From Fluviicola sp. (lineage in GTDB: Bacteria > Bacteroidota > Bacteroidia > Flavobacteriales_D > Crocinitomicaceae), in contig JAGOAZ010000004.1 of assembly GCA_017983675.1 (NCBI GenBank), forward strand, positions 1 through 64,000: DNA of 64,000 nt, written 5' to 3'. Made by a program: the position numbers and the translations under genes. A model generated the notes under the pieces. That model ran no database searches and was not told where the DNA came from. It saw only the letters and a program-made list of their open reading frames with translations. This document shows positions 804 to 8,615 of the stretch, piece by piece; within the stretch, counting starts at the first letter, position 1; each line of letters starts with the position of its first letter.

Positions 804-941
804 AATAATGCATTTAAAAAGTGCAAAAAACATCAAAAAATCCACTGTAATAGTGCAACACCTCTTTTTTAAGGACTCTATTTAAAATCGTTTCAATTTT
901 AGGAGAAGCTTACCGCTTAACTACGAAATAAAAAAAATGAA

Positions 942-985: not shown

Positions 986-1222
986 ATGGACTTACAAGCC
1001 AGAAAAAAAGCTTTTATTCTCAATTTTCTTCAATTAGAGAGTGAAAAAGTGATTATTGAATTTGAAAAATTATTAAAAAAACAGATGGACGTTTCAAATA
1101 AAATGTCACCGATGTCTCTTTCAGATTTTCAAAATAGAATCAATCAATCAGTTAACGATTCTGATAATGGAAAATTAACATCTTCTGAGAATTTTTTAGA
1201 TGAAATAGCTGAATGGAAATAA
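986..1222 (+). CDS. Putative antitoxin of a ParE/RelE-type module
   Basis: This 78-residue, mostly helical, charged protein shows no DNA-binding domain I can name. An N-terminal helical stretch (about residues 1-35) is followed by a serine/asparagine-rich region and a C-terminal acidic segment ending DEIAEWK. The toxin gene begins at 1213, inside the last codons of this one (10-base overlap), which is the usual translationally coupled antitoxin-first layout. The antitoxin call rests on size, order and overlap, not on family recognition. The C-terminal disordered-looking part would be the expected toxin-binding segment. Confidence 0.6.
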   Translation: MDLQARKKAFILNFLQLESEKVIIEFEKLLKKQMDVSNKMSPMSLSDFQNRINQSVNDSDNGKLTSSENFLDEIAEWK

Positions 1223-1533
1223 AAATCTTTTGGACAGATTTTGCAAAAGCAGCAGTTCGTGCGATTTATGATTATCATGTACTACATGCTAGTAGGAAAG
1301 TAGCGATTAAATTAGTTACTGGAATAGTGGCTGAAACCACACAACTTATCCAACATCCTTCTATTGGTTCTTTTGAACCTTTGTTAGCAAATGACGAAAG
1401 AAATTTCCGTTATCTTATTCATAAATCCTACAAAATAATTTATTGGCATAACAAAAAACGTGAAGTCATTGAAATTATTGATGTTTTCGATTGTCGTCAA
1501 AATCCAATAAAAATAAAAAAAGGTACGCTTTGA
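1213..1533 (+). CDS. ParE/RelE superfamily toxin
   Basis: This 106-residue protein has the ParE/RelE toxin pattern: an IFWTDFAKAAVRAIYDY helix at the N-terminus, a central helix ending in QLIQHPSIGSFEPLL, and C-terminal strands NFRYLIHKSYKIIYWH and VIEIIDVFDCRQNP. The last motif is the conserved FdcRqnP end of Bacteroidota ParE-like toxins. ParE members poison DNA gyrase and RelE members cleave mRNA on the ribosome; the subtype cannot be decided here. It overlaps the antitoxin by 10 bases. The pair sits between the end of a polysaccharide operon and a long repeat block, a typical accessory location. Confidence 0.8.
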   Translation: MEIKIFWTDFAKAAVRAIYDYHVLHASRKVAIKLVTGIVAETTQLIQHPSIGSFEPLLANDERNFRYLIHKSYKIIYWHNKKREVIEIIDVFDCRQNPIKIKKGTL

Positions 1534-1770
1534 TGTTATTACTTCGGATAAAACTTCCAGTCAATTAAGATTAATCATAGCGTATAAAAAAAGCAAGAGA
1601 TAACTTTTGACTTCCAGTTGAAATTCATTTCCAATGAATTTCCCTTACCCATAGTGGTGTTTGTAGACTGGTCCCGACGCTTCAGGATCGAAGTCTACTT
1701 TCCCTCAGTTATCGGAATATCGCTCGAAGCTCCGTACAACATATAAACCTCTTTCGAAGGCAAAAATATA

Positions 1771-1909
1771 AAACCGGGCCTTTGAAACATCCGCAAGGAA
1801 ACAAGCTAAAATGGAGGACAAGTGAACCCAGTGTCTGAGGAGGCACGACGAGTTGGGGTGAACGTCCAGAATGTAGCGTAGCTTTCCGAGGACGGTTTTT
1901 CGGCCCTAG
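1771..1909 (+). other. Conserved core of the composite repeat, copy A (candidate structured RNA)
   Basis: This 139-base segment differs from copy B at only about three positions by eye. GGGCC at 1776-1780 is complementary to GGCCC at 1902-1906 and could close the element. Inside are a TCC-GCAA-GGA hairpin with a GNRA-type tetraloop, a GTGTC/GGCAC hairpin with a six-base loop, and a CGTCC/GGACG stem near the 3' end. No known RNA family is recognised and transcription is not shown. Confidence 0.5.
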
Positions 1910-1918
1910 ACCTTTTTG

Positions 1919-1947
1919 TTACTTTTTGGGGCAATGCCAAAAAGTAA
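1919..1947. repeat. 29-base perfect hairpin module (copy A, first)
   Basis: An 11-base perfect stem (TTACTTTTTGG with CCAAAAAGTAA) surrounds a 7-base loop GGCAATG. The same 29 bases recur at 2103-2131 and 4210-4238, and a decayed form lies at about 5506-5534. Confidence 0.85.
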
Positions 1948-2102
1948 GAAGAAAATAATTGTATTCAATTTAAGAAGTTTTCGGAATGCAGCGTAGCTTT
2001 CCGAGGACGGTTTTTCGGCCCTAGCTTCTAGTGAGACAGATTTTCTTATGAAAATCGTTTTCGAACTGTCCCGATTGAAACTTGTTTCATATTCGGGATT
2101 GG

Positions 2103-2131
2103 TTACTTTTTGGGGCAATGCCAAAAAGTAA
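2103..2131. repeat. 29-base perfect hairpin module (copy A, second)
   Basis: Same 11-bp stem and GGCAATG loop as at 1919-1947. It follows the second, truncated copy of the core 3' end. Confidence 0.85.
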
Positions 2132-2297
2132 AAGAGAATCTTTTTAATCTGAGCAATTAATTGGCTTGTTTTTAGTTAATTTTGGGGCATTAATTTTTCA
2201 ATATTCAACAATTGTAAATTCGATTCGTTACTAGCTGTTTTCATTAAAATAGCTTACGAGATTAAACCGAACTTCAGGGAATAAAAAGATAAGAAAC

Positions 2298-3935
2298 ATG
2301 GCATTAAAAGCAATCAATCCTACAGCTACTGCAGCATGGCAACAACTAGCCGCGCATTTTGAACAAGTGAATCAGGTGCACATGCACGAATTGTTTGCTG
2401 CTGATCCGTTGCGGACGGAGAAAATGCACATCGAATGGAATGATTTCTTAGTCGATTATTCTAAAAATAGAGTAACCGATGAAACAATGTCGTTGTTGTT
2501 GTCATTGGCGAAAGAAGTTGATTTAGCGGACGCAATCCAAAAATATTTTGCTGGCGATTGTATCAATCAAACAGAAAACAGAGCGGTATTACATACTGCT
2601 TTACGAGCAACCGAAAAAGAAGCAATCTTGGTCGATGGTGTGAATGTGTTACCGGAAATAACTGCGGTAAAAAATAACATCAAACAGTTTTCTGATGAGG
2701 TTATATCGGGAAAACGCTTAGGATTTTCGGGCAAGCCTTTTACAGATGTTGTCAATATCGGTATCGGAGGTTCTGATTTGGGTCCAGCGATGATTGTGGA
2801 GGCCTTACAATTTTATAAAAACCACTTGAATGTTCACTTCGTCTCCAATGTAGATGGCGACCATGTTCAGGAAGTATTGAAGCGATTAAATCCCGAGACA
2901 ACACTTTTTGTGGTTGTTTCGAAAACGTTTACCACGCAAGAAACTTTAACGAATGCTGAAACGATTCGTTCTTGGTTTTTACAATCGGGAACACAAGCTG
3001 CAGTTGCGCAACATTTTGTTGCTGTATCGACGAATATTCAAAAAGTAACCGAATTCGGCATCAGTCCTGACGCTATTTTCCCGATGTGGGATTGGGTAGG
3101 TGGTCGTTTTTCATTGTGGAGCGCTGTTGGTTTATCGATCAGTCTTGCAGTTGGCTATGACCATTTTGAAAGTTTGTTAACTGGTGCAAACAAAATGGAC
3201 GAACATTTCAAAAACGAAGCGTTTGAGAAAAATATTCCAGTTGTTTTAGCACTGTTAAGTATTTGGTACAATAATTTTTACGGTGCTGAAAGCGAAGCAT
3301 TGATTCCGTATACGCAATATTTGCAAAAATTAGCGCCGTATTTGCAACAAGGCATCATGGAAAGCAACGGAAAGCGTGTTGGTCGCGATGGAAAGCCCGT
3401 CTCTTACCAAACGGGAACCATTATTTGGGGTGAACCTGGAACGAATTCACAACACGCATTTTTTCAATTGATTCACCAAGGAACAAAGTTAATACCTACA
3501 GATTTCATTGGATTTAAACAATCCTTGTATGGCAACAAAGTCCATCACGATAAATTAATGTCGAATTTCTTTGCCCAAACAGAGGCCTTGTTAATGGGAA
3601 AAACAGCAGAACAAGTTACGGATGAGTTTGTCAAACAACAACTTCCAAGCGAAACAGCTGATTTCTTGCTTCCATTTAAAGTGTTTGAAGGGAATAAACC
3701 AACGAATACTTTGTTAATCGACCAATTAACACCTACAAGTTTGGGTTCTTTGGTTGCATTGTACGAGCACAAATTGTTTGTTCAGGGCGTTATTTGGAAC
3801 ATTTTCAGTTACGACCAGTGGGGGGTAGAGTTAGGTAAGCAATTAGCAAGTAGTATTTTGGGAGAAATCGACAGCCAACAAATCTCCCAACACGATGCTT
3901 CGACTACTTTCTTGCTGAACAAGTATTTGAAATAA
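2298..3935 (+). CDS. pgi: Glucose-6-phosphate isomerase
   Basis: This full-length 545-residue protein of the SIS-fold PGI family interconverts glucose-6-phosphate and fructose-6-phosphate in cytosolic glycolysis and gluconeogenesis. It also links central metabolism to the mannose/fucose genes upstream. Visible motifs are [13 protein letters not shown] (about residues 153-165), [10 protein letters not shown] (208-217), the signature [14 protein letters not shown] (about 268-281) and [16 protein letters not shown] (about 382-397), which carries the catalytic histidine. Length matches bacterial PGI. It stands alone between repeat copies A and B, so it is probably transcribed by itself; no clear TAnnTTTG box is seen before it. 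Confidence 0.97.
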
Positions 3936-4061
3936 ATAATCCCTTGCCTTTGATCCCGAGACGTCGGGAACAATTCTTTTTCAATGAACTTTCCTCAGTC
4001 AACGGGAATATCCTTCGAAGTTCCGGACAACATGTAAACCTTTTTCGAAGGCAGAAATATA

Positions 4062-4200
4062 AAACCGGGCCTTTGAAACATCCGCAAGGAAACCAGCTAA
4101 AATGGAGGACAAGTGAACCCAGTGTCTGAGGAGGCACGACGAGTTGGGGTGAACGTCCGGAATGCAGCGTAGCTTTCCGAGGACGGTTTTTCGGCCCTAG
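4062..4200 (+). other. Conserved core of the composite repeat, copy B (candidate structured RNA)
   Basis: This copy has the same length as copy A and about three differences. Here the 3' hairpin is fully paired: CGTCC-GGAA opposite TTCC-GA-GGACG. GGGCC at 4067-4071 and GGCCC at 4193-4197 are the complementary ends. It contains short open frames but none looks like a protein. Confidence 0.5.
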
Positions 4201-4209
4201 ACTTTTTTG

Positions 4210-4238
4210 TTACTTTTTGGGGCAATGCCAAAAAGTAA
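4210..4238. repeat. 29-base perfect hairpin module (copy B)
   Basis: Identical in stem and loop to the modules at 1919-1947 and 2103-2131, and placed 9 bases after the end of the core, as in copy A. Confidence 0.85.
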
Positions 4239-4516
4239 GAGGAAACCTCTGCCTTCGAGTTGGAATTCATTTTCAATGAATTTCCCTCAGTCATCGTGGT
4301 GTTTGTAGACTGAGGTTCTTGAAGTCTACTATCCCTTGCCTTTGAGTTGGAATTCATTTTCAATGAATTTCCCTGAGTCATCGGGTATATAGCTCGAAGC
4401 TCCGTACAACACATAAACCTCTTTCGAAGGCAGAAATATAAAACCGGGACTTTCAAATATCCACAAGGAAACAAACTTAATCCCAAAGGCCATCTCTGTT
4501 ATTTATTTCACCGCAT

Positions 4517-4553
4517 AAAAAAAGTCCTCTGCTAACAAACAGAGGACTTTTTT
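4517..4553 (-). terminator. Terminator of the outer-membrane barrel gene
   Basis: AAAGTCCTCT (4521-4530) pairs with AGAGGACTTT (4541-4550) around a 10-base loop, with A/T tracts on both sides. It lies 17 bases past the stop of the minus-strand gene and could also stop plus-strand readthrough from the repeat block. Confidence 0.85.
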
Positions 4554-4569
4554 AATACTTTAAGTAAGC

Positions 4570-5088
4570 TTAGAACTTATAAGAAATTCCAATTGTAGTA
4601 TTTAAATAATTTTTTAAATCAGTATTACTTTTAAATAATAAAATGTAAGAAGCATCCATTTGAATACTCATTTTATCGTTTAATTTATACGAAGGAGTTA
4701 AACCAAACATCGTGTTTATCATTGCGTCTCCAGATATACGGTAATTATCTTTGAATAATAAGTCATTGACACGATTTGAAACACCTGCCCCTAAATGAGC
4801 GGTCAAACCATAGTTAGATTCCGTTAATTTTAACATGTTAGTTAAGTTAACTAGACCATTTAAATTTACACGAGTCATATTGTTATCACCAAACTGGTCC
4901 AAACCAGCATCCAAACGCGCACTGAATAAAGGAGTGATTTTATATGCAACTCCTATATTGGCTGCTATACCTGTGTTCACACCACTTCCTGCATGAGCAC
5001 CAAGATTTAAATCAGCAGTGATTTTTTGTCCAAAAGATACACTTGATAGTGCAAGGAAGATAGGTAAAATAATTTTTTTCATAGACAT
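4570..5088 (-). CDS. Outer-membrane beta-barrel protein
   Basis: This 172-residue protein has a signal peptide (MKKIILPIFLALSSVSFGQ; start possible at 5088 or at the second Met, 5082). It is followed by alternating amphipathic strands and ends in GISYKF, a C-terminal aromatic residue typical of outer-membrane barrels. Motifs such as NIGVAYKITPLFSARLDAG resemble small OmpA-like or OprF-type 8-strand barrels of Bacteroidota. No peptidoglycan-binding domain is attached. Function is unknown; a structural or porin-like role in the outer membrane is inferred. It is a single gene bounded by repeat copies B and C with its own terminator. Confidence 0.7.
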   Translation of the reverse strand: MSMKKIILPIFLALSSVSFGQKITADLNLGAHAGSGVNTGIAANIGVAYKITPLFSARLDAGLDQFGDNNMTRVNLNGLVNLTNMLKLTESNYGLTAHLGAGVSNRVNDLLFKDNYRISGDAMINTMFGLTPSYKLNDKMSIQMDASYILLFKSNTDLKNYLNTTIGISYKF

Positions 5089-5204
5089 GATTTTTTTTTA
5101 AATATACGTATAGTTGTTAAAAAGGTTACTATTAAGTACAGTTTTCTGTAAAAATTTCATTTTAGTTCACTGAGTTTTATAAAAACACGAGGTTTCATTG
5201 TTTA

Positions 5205-5541
5205 CTATTCCTAAGTCATCGGGAATATCGCTCGAAGCTACGTACAACATATAAATTTCTTTCGAAGTTAGGAATATAAAACCGGGCATTTGAAACATCC
5301 GCAAGGATACAAGCTAAATACCGAACCGTCGGGAGGAGAAGTGAACCCAGTGTCTGAGGAGGCACGACGGGTTTGGGTGAACGTCCGGAATGTAGCGTAG
5401 TTTTCAGAGGACGGTTTTTCGGCCCTAGTTTCTAGGGAGATAGATTTTCATTCGAAAATCGTTGGCGAACTGTCCCGATTGAATTTTTTTTCATATTCGG
5501 GATTTGTTACTATTTTGGTAATGAAAAAAGTAAGAGAAAAC
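5205..5541 (+). repeat. Composite dispersed repeat, copy C
   Basis: This occupies most of the gap 5089-5562. The module order matches copies A and B: a TAAGTCATCGGGAATATCGCTCGAAGC segment split over the 5' part, CTTTCGAAG, core (5279-5428), the GATTTTC/GAAAATC and TCCCGA/TCGGGA hairpins (about 5440-5504), then a degenerate terminal hairpin (5506-5534). It is more diverged than A and B and looks like an older copy. Confidence 0.8.
5279..5428 (+). other. Conserved core of the composite repeat, copy C (candidate structured RNA)
   Basis: The closing arm has changed (GGGCA instead of GGGCC), while the GCAA tetraloop hairpin, the GTGTC/GGCAC hairpin and the CGTCC/GGACG stem are intact. The internal part between the first two hairpins is rearranged (ACCGAACCGTCGGGAGG), which makes it about 10 bases longer than A and B. 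Confidence 0.45.
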
Positions 5542-5562
5542 CATAGGTTATAAAAATCTATT

Positions 5563-6027
5563 TTAATCTTCCAGTTGAACGGTTAAAACAAGTCCCAATT
5601 CATCCAACTTTATTTTCACTGATTTACCTCTGACTTCTTCAATCAATCCTTTTTTATCTTTAAACACACCAGATGGAATAAGGAATTCATCTCCCTTTTT
5701 TAGGTGATCAACTGTAAAACTGCAAACGGTATTTTTTGATAATTCTTTTAATACCTCAATTTCACTGTCGCGAACAATAGCAGGATTTTTTAACCAATGC
5801 ACGTAGCGAACTACACCAGGTACGTCGAATACCTTAAAACGATGTACTTCGTCAAGTTGTACAAAAACATATGAATTAATTAAAGGAATAGTGACTTTCT
5901 TTTTACGATCCGACCATTGTTTGATTGTCGTTATCATCGGGCAAAAAGCTTCAATTCCGATAGCGAGTAGTTGTTCGGTTACTTTTTTTTCGTTTCGGGG
6001 TTTCGTGTAAATAACAAACCAAGGCAT
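5563..6027 (-). CDS. UpxY/NusG-like transcription antiterminator
   Basis: This 154-residue NusG paralogue has an NGN domain starting MPWFVIYTKPRNEKKV, with the NusG-type PLINSYVFVQ strand at about residues 49-58. A C-terminal KOW motif is at about 110-140 (GDEFLIPSGVFKDKKGLIEEV). Length and composition fit UpxY or RfaH-type specialised elongation factors, which bind RNA polymerase and let long surface-polysaccharide operons be transcribed past early terminators. It sits divergent to the SLBB export gene and inside a polysaccharide region, in keeping with that role. Its target operon is not shown by the sequence. Confidence 0.85.
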   Translation of the reverse strand: MPWFVIYTKPRNEKKVTEQLLAIGIEAFCPMITTIKQWSDRKKKVTIPLINSYVFVQLDEVHRFKVFDVPGVVRYVHWLKNPAIVRDSEIEVLKELSKNTVCSFTVDHLKKGDEFLIPSGVFKDKKGLIEEVRGKSVKIKLDELGLVLTVQLED

Positions 6028-6098: not shown

Positions 6099-6176
6099 TT
6101 CGGAATCGAAGTCTACTTTCCCTCAGTCATCGGTGTATCTGTAAACTAAGGTTAACGAAGTATACTATCTCTAAGT
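6099..6176 (+). repeat. Relic of the composite repeat, fragment D
   Basis: The segment carries the TCGAAGTCTACTTTCCCTCAG and TCATCGG modules seen in copy A at about 1688-1716, and a mutated GTAAACT/AGTATAC version of the GTAGACT/AGTCTAC stem. No core or 29-base hairpin follows. Confidence 0.6.
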
Positions 6177-6284: not shown

Positions 6285-8615
6285 ATGAATATGACAATCA
6301 CTATCAAACTGTACAAGCTTCATCATCTTTATCTTTTATTAATTTGTTTACTTTTTTCTTTTTTAGGTTTTTCTCAAGGAGCACTTAATGCATCCAATTT
6401 GAGCACATTTAAAGCTGGAAGTTTATCAGAAGCTGAGATAATTCAAATTCAAAAAGAATTAGCGAATAATAACATGACTTTTGATCAAGCAGCACAATTA
6501 GCAATAGCAAAAGGTGCACCAGCTGGAGAAGTTGAACAATTAAGAGGTCGATTACAAAGTGCTCCTGCTCCTGTTGCGACTGCAACCATTGACCCAACGG
6601 TTCAGGCTGAGGTTGCACCAGTAGTTACAGCAACGAAAGCAGTATCGAAAGACCTATCATTGTTTGGTTCTGAGTTGTTTGGTTCTCCGAATTTAAGTTT
6701 TGAACCCAATACAAACATCCCTGCTTCTCCTAATTATGTGTTGGGAATTAATGATGTACTTGAATTGAATGTTTGGGGTGTACAACAGTTATCGTACAGC
6801 GGCAAAATTTCTAATAGAGGAATTATCGCTGTCCCTAATGTTGGGGAGGTTTTTGTTAGTGGATTAACCTTAGATGCTGCAGAAACAAAATTAAAAGCAG
6901 CTGTTTCACGGATCTATTCAACTGTTGGTTCAGGAAGTAAATTTTCTGTCAATGTATCCAGTTTTCGAACGATTTCGATTACAATCATAGGTGCAAGCCA
7001 ACCTGGAAATTACAAAGTAAGTTCCATGAGTACGGTATTTAATGCGTTACACATTGCTGGTGGACCAAGTGGTATAGGTTCGTATAGAAACATTGAAGTC
7101 ATTCGGAACGATAAGGTTATTCGTGTTGTTGATTTGTACAAGTTTTTAACGCGTGGTGATCAATCAGATAATATTGGGTTGAAAGATAATGATGTGATTC
7201 GTATTCCAGCTTACAAAGCACGTATTTCGTTGGAAGGGGAGGTGAAACGTCCTGGTATTTTTGAATTAGCAGCAGGTGAAAACTTGGAGCGCATTTTAGA
7301 GTATGCTGGCTGGTTTACCGAAGATGCTTACATAAATCGCATTGCAATTGAACAAAAAACGGGTAAAGAGCGCAAAGTAGCAGATTTAACTGCAACAACG
7401 TATGCGGCATATATCCCGCAAGCTGGGGATGTGATTTCTGTAGCCAAAATTTTAGATCGTTACGAAAATAGAGTTCAAGTTCGCGGTGCAGTTTTCCGTC
7501 CAGGTACATATAGTATCGAAGAAGGAATGACTGTTAAATCGTTGATTGAAAAAGCGAACGGTGTTGTTGAAAACGTGTTTTTAGATCGCGCTACCTTAAT
7601 TCGTGAGTTAACCGATTTAACAAAAACATACGTTACAATAAATTTAAAAGCTGCTTTAGCAGGTGATGCACAACAAAATATTTCCCTACAAAAAGAAGAC
7701 GAGTTAGTCGTTTACTTTAATTACGACTTACTTGAAAAACATACTGTTTCAATTAGTGGTGAAGTTAGAAAACCAGGTGGCTATCCGTTTACTCCTGAAA
7801 TTACTTTGCAGAATTTAATCATGGAAGCAGAAGGTTTAACAGATTTAGCTGCGAAAAAAATTGAAATTTCACGTGTTCGTAAAGATTCGTTGTACGATGA
7901 GAAAGATCCAAATCGTATTATTCACTTTAATTTAGTGTATGATCCAATTTCAAATACAGATGCTGCAACGTTTAAATTAGAACCAGAAGACAATGTTATT
8001 GTGCGTAGAATTGAAGTGTACGAAACACAACAACAGGTTTCAGTTTCAGGAACGGTCTTGTATCCAGGTCCTTATTCATTGATTACGAAAGACGAGCGTG
8101 TGTCAGATTTATTAGCGCGTACGGGTGGTTTTACAAAAGAAGCAAATTTGAGCCAAATGCATTTATTAAGAAATGGATTTATGATTCCTATTACTTGGAG
8201 AAATGGAGTAGCAAAACCAACACGCCGATCTGATTTGATATTAAAACCAGGAGATCAGTTAATTGTTCCGAGTTTCGAATCGACTGTAACAATAACGGGT
8301 GCTGTTTTGTATCCAACAATTGTTCCATTAGAAGGAAAAAAAGGAGTCCGTTTTTACATAAACGCAGCTGGGGGTGATACAGAAAATGCAGATTTGAAAC
8401 GTGTGTATGTGGTGAGTCAAAATGGACGAGTGGTTTCCACAAAACAATTCTTGTTCATCCGAAATTACCCAGAACTAGCAGGAGGTGCTCAAGTCGTGGT
8501 TCCACAAAAAGAAGAGAAAAAGGTGAAAGAAAAAGTCGATGGCACAGCTCTAATTGCATATTCTACAGCATTTGCGAGTGTAGCAAGTATAATTATTGCA
8601 ATTTTAAGATTATAA
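6285..8615 (+). CDS. SLBB-domain polysaccharide export protein (Wza-like)
   Basis: This 776-residue protein has a signal sequence (hydrophobic residues 14-29, ending FLGFSQ), a linker rich in Ala/Gln/Val, and a Poly_export domain beginning at about residue 148 (PNYVLGINDVLELNVWG). About six SLBB-type repeats follow, near residues 230, 315, 395, 490, 585 and 670, each with a G.V..PG.Y/F pattern. The end is hydrophobic (about 755-776). Wza-family proteins form the outer-membrane or periplasmic channel for capsule or exopolysaccharide. The repeat number exceeds that of E. coli Wza and fits the long Bacteroidota versions. The final hydrophobic segment may be the membrane anchor. Confidence 0.9.
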   Translation: MNMTITIKLYKLHHLYLLLICLLFSFLGFSQGALNASNLSTFKAGSLSEAEIIQIQKELANNNMTFDQAAQLAIAKGAPAGEVEQLRGRLQSAPAPVATATIDPTVQAEVAPVVTATKAVSKDLSLFGSELFGSPNLSFEPNTNIPASPNYVLGINDVLELNVWGVQQLSYSGKISNRGIIAVPNVGEVFVSGLTLDAAETKLKAAVSRIYSTVGSGSKFSVNVSSFRTISITIIGASQPGNYKVSSMSTVFNALHIAGGPSGIGSYRNIEVIRNDKVIRVVDLYKFLTRGDQSDNIGLKDNDVIRIPAYKARISLEGEVKRPGIFELAAGENLERILEYAGWFTEDAYINRIAIEQKTGKERKVADLTATTYAAYIPQAGDVISVAKILDRYENRVQVRGAVFRPGTYSIEEGMTVKSLIEKANGVVENVFLDRATLIRELTDLTKTYVTINLKAALAGDAQQNISLQKEDELVVYFNYDLLEKHTVSISGEVRKPGGYPFTPEITLQNLIMEAEGLTDLAAKKIEISRVRKDSLYDEKDPNRIIHFNLVYDPISNTDAATFKLEPEDNVIVRRIEVYETQQQVSVSGTVLYPGPYSLITKDERVSDLLARTGGFTKEANLSQMHLLRNGFMIPITWRNGVAKPTRRSDLILKPGDQLIVPSFESTVTITGAVLYPTIVPLEGKKGVRFYINAAGGDTENADLKRVYVVSQNGRVVSTKQFLFIRNYPELAGGAQVVVPQKEEKKVKEKVDGTALIAYSTAFASVASIIIAILRL

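What the first reader, a model, noticed from the sequence alone, without database searches (positions are those of the whole stretch)
4062..4200. The 139-base core may be a new structured RNA
In copies A and B the core has complementary ends (GGGCC with GGCCC). Inside are a UCC-GCAA-GGA hairpin with a GNRA-type tetraloop, a GUGUC/GGCAC hairpin with a UGAGGA loop, and a CGUCC/GGACG stem with an inner GGAA/UUCC helix. Copy C keeps the three internal stems while other positions change and lengths differ, which is the pattern expected when structure is selected. A GNRA loop in a multi-helix element could make a tertiary contact. The pairings were found by eye and no transcription evidence is available.
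Basis: partly seen in the sequence, partly recalled or inferred. Interest (0 to 1): 0.7.

Follow-up and report, generated by a model that had tools for sequence, protein, structure and literature searches.

The report
Dispersed rod-folding RNA repeat in Bacteroidia
The 139-base stretch is one copy of an undescribed repeat, scattered across many Bacteroidia genomes, whose copies keep the same long rod-plus-hairpin fold although their letters differ, so the fold itself is under selection; what it does, and what copies it, is unknown.

Summary
Covariance models built here find homologues in 30 of 200 genomes of the family, 37 of 399 of the order and 17 of 395 of the class, up to 32 per genome. 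32-33 of 38 pairs show two-sided changes (599 covarying cells against 201 shuffled; 445 against 133 on a second set). A U-tract and hairpin follow; in one large class the hairpin loop pairs with the rod's end (pseudoknot). Rfam has no match. Copies lie between genes in either orientation, come and go between species, occur in tandem, and have no protein partner that I could find. Once in place they change about four times less than their flanks (97.2% against 89.2% identity). Best reading: a non-coding dispersed repeat whose folded strand, probably RNA, is the functional form. How it spreads and what it does are inferred, not shown.

The parts
4005..4066 (+). 5' conserved flank of copy B, with a small hairpin (CTTCGAAG...TTTTTCGAAGG); shared by copies A, C and the fragment at 4351-4480
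   Evidence: direct repeats, alignment
4066..4200 (+). copy B, rod: P1 GGGCC 4067-4071/GGCCC 4193-4197, then one nested stem inwards (UCC 4081-4083 pairs with the GGA of the 3' side, GGAAAC 4088-4093 with GCUUUCC near 4173-4179) up to a CCC/GGG stem and a short apical hairpin; ends in CTAG
   Evidence: R1 match 102.6 bits, E 5e-25; covariation; energy
4201..4238 (+). copy B, 3' domain: AC-TTTTTT-G (4201-4209) and hairpin TTACTTTTTGG-GGCAATG-CCAAAAAGTAA (4210-4238), CTAG class with GNRA-type loop
1775..1909 (+). copy A, rod (98% identical to B over the last 97 bases)
1910..1947 (+). copy A, U-tract and 3' hairpin
5283..5428 (+). copy C, rod with an 11-base insertion
   Evidence: R1 72 bits
5429..5533 (+). 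copy C, 3' domain with two extra hairpins before the terminal hairpin TTACTATTTTGGTAATGAAAAAAGTAA (5507-5533)
1982..2134 (+). fragment: last 43 bases of a rod plus a long 3' domain like that of copy C
4351..4480 (+). fragment: 5' flank and first part of a rod only

Best explanation
4066-4238 is one copy of a family of dispersed non-coding repeats of Bacteroidia (about 200-300 bases; in the best-delimited subfamily about 220: a 13-base leader, a rod of about 170 bases, and a U-tract with a hairpin). Shown: the rod fold is conserved by compensatory change; the 3' hairpin loop of one class pairs with the rod's end; copies are present or absent at the same site in related species, stand in non-orthologous gaps between genes in both orientations and in tandem; each copy is then conserved in place more than its surroundings. 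Inferred: the folded single strand, probably RNA read from this strand, is the working form; a factor supplied in trans recognises it and it multiplies as a non-autonomous element (no terminal repeats or target duplication found); copies that still fold keep a use, for the element or for the host, that purges changes. The U-tract next to a U/A stem may form a U.A-U triple helix that protects the 3' end (inferred from the arrangement only).
For: Covariation: 32/38, 33/38, 22/38 and 32/38 pairs with two-sided change, 92.2/91.3/90.9/88.6% of cells paired against 27-51% when slid. Pseudoknot: free position paired in 48 of 50 copies, 0 of 20000 shuffles. Strand asymmetry: G-U/A-C 2.9-3.1 against 1.4-1.5 shuffled. 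Dispersal: 0 to 32 copies among species of one genus; empty orthologous sites in G115 and G142 against three tandem copies in G014 and in G003 against two in G010; 94% identical elements in unrelated flanks. No orientation bias: 22 sense, 19 antisense between tandem genes. In-place constraint: 97.2% against 89.2% (adjacent) and 87.0% (farther), 18 orthologous pairs, ending sharply at the element's borders, not due to gene conversion (paralogues 83.4%).
Against: No mobilising protein, terminal repeat or target duplication was found. Strong conservation in place is not typical of a dead selfish repeat. No conserved upstream promoter in the best-delimited subfamily and no transcription data, so RNA as the working form is not shown. 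Recent differences between orthologues preserve pairing in only 5 of 17 changed pairs.
Confidence: 0.5

Rival explanations
1. A host-useful cis element: each copy is a 3'-UTR or intergenic device (mRNA stabiliser, ribonuclease block, bidirectional terminator) that spread by duplication and is now kept by host selection.
For: In-place constraint; many copies lie close to stop codons, 32 of 84 between convergent genes; stable 3' hairpin or pseudoknot next to a U-tract.
Against: No orientation bias although the fold is strand-asymmetric; most sampled genomes of the class lack it; no shared neighbour genes; the hairpin is preceded, not followed, by the T-run, so it is not a canonical terminator on this strand.
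Confidence: 0.25
2. It is the cognate repeat of a Y1 (HUH) transposase, i.e. a giant REP-like element moved as folded single-stranded DNA by a RAYT, for instance of the Bacteroidetes subclass 2.6.
For: Subclass 2.6 genes are reported to be flanked by atypical secondary structures copied elsewhere in the genome (PMC6006769); such genes occur in G009, G011, G013 and G026; no terminal inverted repeats or target duplications seen, as in IS200/IS605.
Against: No rod within 1.5 kb of any of 30 Y1 loci; the strong structures beside these genes are other, short hairpins; Y1 was not detected in the element carriers G012 and G018 and is present in non-carriers.
Confidence: 0.12
3. A guide or bridge RNA of an RNA-guided enzyme (TnpB/IscB omega RNA, IS110 bridge RNA) scattered without its gene.
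For: Size, structure, pseudoknot and dispersal resemble such RNAs in general terms (general knowledge).
Against: TnpB domain PF07282 absent above cut-off in all 31 genomes; IS110 PF02371 absent from most carriers, including copy-rich G011, G010, G014, G087 and G027; no Rfam match, hence none to HEARO. IscB itself was not searched by protein.
Confidence: 0.03
4. A reverse-transcribed retroelement (group II intron derivative, retron or SINE-like RNA).
For: Would explain an RNA-level fold together with genomic dispersal.
Against: No RVT_1 match in G000, G001, G003, G010 or the complete chromosome of G011 with 32 copies; no rod near reverse-transcriptase genes of other hosts; no intron or retron Rfam hit.
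Confidence: 0.05
5. One reading: a multi-helix RNA of three local hairpins inside a closing stem.
For: It is the minimum-energy fold of copy B alone.
Against: Only 0.9 kcal/mol better than the rod in B and 5.9 worse in A; its local hairpins pair at only 45-53% in homologues.
Confidence: 0.03

Closest known systems
REP/BIME repeats mobilised by RAYT (Y1) transposases (PMC6006769, PMC3733652)
   Same: Dispersed non-coding intergenic copies that fold, often several together, number varying between species, no terminal inverted repeats or target duplications seen
   Different: About 200-300 bases against 20-40; elaborate nested rod plus pseudoknot or GNRA-type hairpin; strong compensatory covariation; no GTAG/CGTC-tagged short palindrome; no rod beside the Y1 genes tested
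ERIC/IRU and BOX elements and prokaryotic MITEs (from general knowledge; reviewed in PMC10969869, not read here)
   Same: Small protein-less repeats, intergenic, palindromic, presumed mobilised in trans
   Different: No terminal inverted repeats found; conserved single-strand motifs (UGUUUGA/CGAGUU, GUAG, CUUGA/UCAAG) and in-place conservation above that of the flanks
Structured RNA families of Rfam
   Same: Covarying secondary structure with conserved loops
   Different: No Rfam 15 family matches; multicopy and dispersed; no conserved upstream promoter in the best-delimited subfamily; transcription untested
Telomerase-RNA-type H-type pseudoknot with U.A-U triples (general knowledge)
   Same: A U-tract placed to cross a U/A stem of an H-type pseudoknot
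   Different: Only the arrangement is alike; no triple helix was shown, and the CTAG class has a GNRA-type loop instead of the knot

Membership tests
Conserved structured RNA/ssDNA family | Compensatory base-pair change beyond shuffled and slid controls | tested here: met
Conserved structured RNA family | The molecule is transcribed | not testable with these tools
   No RNA-seq; only the G-U over A-C asymmetry as a hint
Rfam 15 families (including HEARO, group II introns, GOLLD, ROOL) | Covariance-model match at gathering score | tested here: not met
   relaxed search of 1500-5700 also negative
REP/RAYT | Short palindrome tagged by GTAG or similar tetranucleotide | tested here: not met
   Anatomy
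REP/RAYT | Repeats flank a Y1 (RAYT) gene | tested here: not met
   0 rod matches around 30 Y1 loci; other hairpins flank the subclass 2.6 genes
MITE of a DDE insertion sequence | Terminal inverted repeats and target site duplication | tested here: inconclusive
   None seen when copies were aligned with their flanks or at the empty sites, but intergenic sequence is diverged; weak similarity between ends of one subfamily was not tested further
Dispersed mobile repeat (any) | Presence/absence at orthologous sites and identical elements in unrelated flanks | tested here: met
TnpB omega RNA | Cognate TnpB in the host genome | tested here: not met
   PF07282
IS110 bridge RNA | Cognate IS110 recombinase in the host genome, RNA at the element's end | tested here: not met
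   PF02371 absent from most carriers; no recurring neighbour gene
Y RNA | Ro/TROVE protein in the host | tested here: not met
   PF05731 only in the non-carrier G047
Group II intron/retron | Reverse transcriptase in the host or beside the RNA | tested here: not met
   PF00078 absent from G000, G001, G003, G010, G011; none near rods
Integron attC | RYYYAAC...GTTRRRY ends, cassette array beside an integrase | tested here: not met
   By inspection: rod ends are GGC(C)...G(G)CC and copies are scattered over the chromosome in both orientations; an integrase was not searched

The most novel reading that the evidence does not exclude
A class-wide, protein-less genetic element of Bacteroidia that works and spreads through a folded RNA: a rod with fixed internal-loop motifs and a pseudoknotted, possibly triple-helical, 3' end, kept by selection in place. 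It would be a new kind of structured-RNA repeat with either a host role or an unknown copying route.
Probability: 0.25. Interest if true: 0.85.

Novelty: new variant of a known kind. Interest (0 to 1): 0.66.

Why it matters
Dispersed bacterial repeats are usually short palindromes or decayed insertion-sequence ends. Here one elaborate fold persists by compensatory change across many families of a class, copies come and go, and yet each copy is conserved in place. That combination makes the question 'selfish repeat or working RNA?' directly testable: the covariance model can be searched, and cultured hosts on which to do RNA-seq, pull-down and deletions exist (Fluviicola, Lishizhenia).

Tried and rejected
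Rfam at gathering and relaxed thresholds: nothing relevant. Reverse transcriptase, Y1 transposase, TnpB, IS110 and TROVE as partners: absent, uncorrelated or not adjacent. Recurring neighbour genes: only orthologous loci and antisense frames of the element itself. Viral contigs: no match to the apical pattern or to the exact 3' hairpin. Nucleotide synteny of the window locus in the genus: too diverged. Plain MAFFT plus RNAalifold on 15 raw sequences failed (9 pairs) because of the variable apical hairpin; trimming that hairpin and adding alignment placeholders (N) gave the usable seed. A own-promoter model: no conserved region upstream of the leader in the subfamily with 18 orthologous pairs; a promoter-like string in another subfamily was not tested. 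Literature searches found no description of such a repeat in Fluviicola, Crocinitomicaceae or Bacteroidetes; the library lacks most subscription papers.

Full report
What is there. The named strings sit at the stated places, and the window holds three near-complete copies, A (1775-1909), B (4066-4200) and C (5283-5428), plus two fragments. Rfam finds only tRNAs in the window and nothing relevant at relaxed thresholds. Copies A, B and C are too alike, and single-sequence folding too weak (z -1.2, -1.4, -0.5 for B, A, C), to decide anything on their own.

Homologues. A nucleotide search of 40 genomes of relatives gave faint matches that proved to be diverged full elements. They share GGC(C) ends, a CCCC-UGUUUGAG-[variable hairpin]-CGAGUU-GGGG middle, and a U-tract with a hairpin after the rod. 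A seed alignment of eight sequences with the variable apical hairpin trimmed gave a covariance model of 136 positions and 38 pairs (R1). R1 matched 16 of 59 genomes, with E-values down to 4e-31 and up to 32 copies in one complete chromosome. A second model R2 matched 30 of 200 genomes of the family, 37 of 399 of the order and 17 of 395 of the class. Only 7-14 candidates per genome are scored in these large searches, so copy numbers there are lower bounds. Named hosts include Fluviicola, Lishizhenia, Brumimicrobium and unnamed Crocinitomicaceae. Viral contigs gave none.

The fold. The conserved structure is a nested rod, not three local hairpins. On A4 (69 distinct sequences) 92.2% of cells pair, 32 of 38 pairs have two-sided changes, and 599 cells covary against 201 after shuffling; slid structures pair at 28-46%. 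A5 was collected with a sequence pattern that looks only at the apical part, so it is a fairer test of the outer helices: 33 of 38 pairs, 445 against 133. Distant families of the class (A7) give 32 of 38 and 274 against 85, and one genus alone gives 22 of 38. All alignments were fitted to a model, which leans towards it, and the sequences are related; the slid controls and the size of the effect make these unlikely as the cause. In energy, rod and branched form differ by 0.9 kcal/mol in copy B, and the rod wins by 5.9 in copy A, so the branched form may be an alternative state of B. Non-Watson-Crick cells are asymmetric: G-U over A-C 2.9-3.1, against 1.4-1.5 shuffled, as expected if the + strand RNA is the selected molecule, though single-stranded DNA would lean the same way.

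The 3' domain. Nearly every rod is followed by a U-tract, usually ending in G, and a hairpin with a U/A-rich stem. There are two main classes. Rods that end in CTAG mostly carry a GGYRATG loop (GNRA type); rods that end in CTTGA mostly carry an NTCAAG loop complementary to CTTGAN. The free position is T-A, C-G, A-T or G-T in 48 of 50 copies, and 0 of 20000 shuffles reach this (related copies are not independent). This is an H-type pseudoknot whose first loop is the U-tract and whose second stem is the U/A stem, the arrangement that permits U.A-U triples. The triple helix is inference. Copies A and B are of the CTAG class.

Spread. Copies sit between genes: of 84, 32 between convergent genes, 22 in sense and 19 in antisense between tandem genes, 11 between divergent genes (genes called here from open frames only), so there is no orientation preference. 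G014 has three head-to-tail copies between two genes that stand next to each other without any copy in G115 and in one G142 contig. G010 has two inverted copies beside coaE where G003 has none. Elements 94% alike stand in unrelated flanks. This is dispersal, yet I found no terminal inverted repeats or target duplications, no shared neighbour gene and no protein partner.

In-place conservation. For 18 orthologous pairs in one genus, element identity is 97.2%, against 89.2% in about the adjacent 100 bases and 87.0% farther out, mostly genes. The conserved stretch runs from about -15 to +195 relative to the rod and includes no upstream promoter. Copies within one genome are only 83.4% alike (median), so gene conversion does not explain it. 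Pairs share species, so the p-values are nominal. Recent orthologous changes preserve pairing in only 5 of 17 cases, a small number that does not support ongoing compensation on this time scale.

Partners tested. Reverse transcriptases are absent from several copy-rich genomes. Y1 transposases with the motifs of the Bacteroidetes subclass 2.6, reported to be flanked by atypical structures (PMC6006769), occur in several hosts, but rods are not near them and the strong structures beside them are short hairpins. TnpB, TROVE and IS110 do not track the element.

Verdict. The element is a real, apparently undescribed, class-wide family of structure-conserved dispersed repeats. It behaves like a REP/ERIC/BOX-type repeat in distribution and like a structured RNA in constraint, and it fails the tests for the specific known systems tried. 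Mechanism of spread and function remain inferred.

Noticed in passing
window 867-917: Another short repeat: 86-88% matches on three other contigs of the same genome (C33, C29, C2) and one in G013.
   Followed up: no
window 1588-1670, 4230-4312, 4281-4336, 6117-6172: Further repeated modules (TTTCCCTCAGTCATCG...GTAGACT...) interleaved with the element copies, so the gaps around pgi are a mosaic of local repeats.
   Followed up: no
window 1213-1533: ParE-type toxin gene upstream of copy A; an antitoxin partner was not looked for.
   Followed up: no
window 5563-6027 and 6285-8615: A stand-alone NusG-domain gene (UpxY-like, by position) beside a polysaccharide export (SLBB/Poly_export) gene; copy C lies next to it.
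   Followed up: no
window 4517-4555: Strong bidirectional terminator-like hairpin AAAAAAAGTCCTCTG...CAGAGGACTTTTTTA between copy B and the outer-membrane-type gene.
   Followed up: no
L252 (G115:C116) 1190-1460: Just after the rod's CCTAG, a hairpin start (TCCCGATAGCTATC) is followed by unrelated sequence and an IS110-family transposase gene (domain at G115:C116:7736-7993): an IS110 element seems to have inserted in the 3' domain.
   Followed up: partly
L059, L062, L069, L070 (G011); L031, L035, L028 (G042, G012, G001): Some copies carry an extra module in the 3' domain (ACCTC...GTCTTC with its own hairpins), inserted before or inside the terminal hairpin.
   Followed up: no
L269, L233, L235, L268 upstream of the rod: One subfamily has a conserved string GTTTAGCGTTATTGAAAGAAGATAGACTTG before the leader that loosely resembles a Bacteroidota promoter; not tested.
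   Followed up: no
L165, L162, L166, L168 around the Y1 transposase gene: Subclass 2.6 Y1 genes are flanked by short G+C-rich hairpins (for example CACGCGAAAGGATTCGCGTG-like), probably their own cognate repeats.
   Followed up: partly
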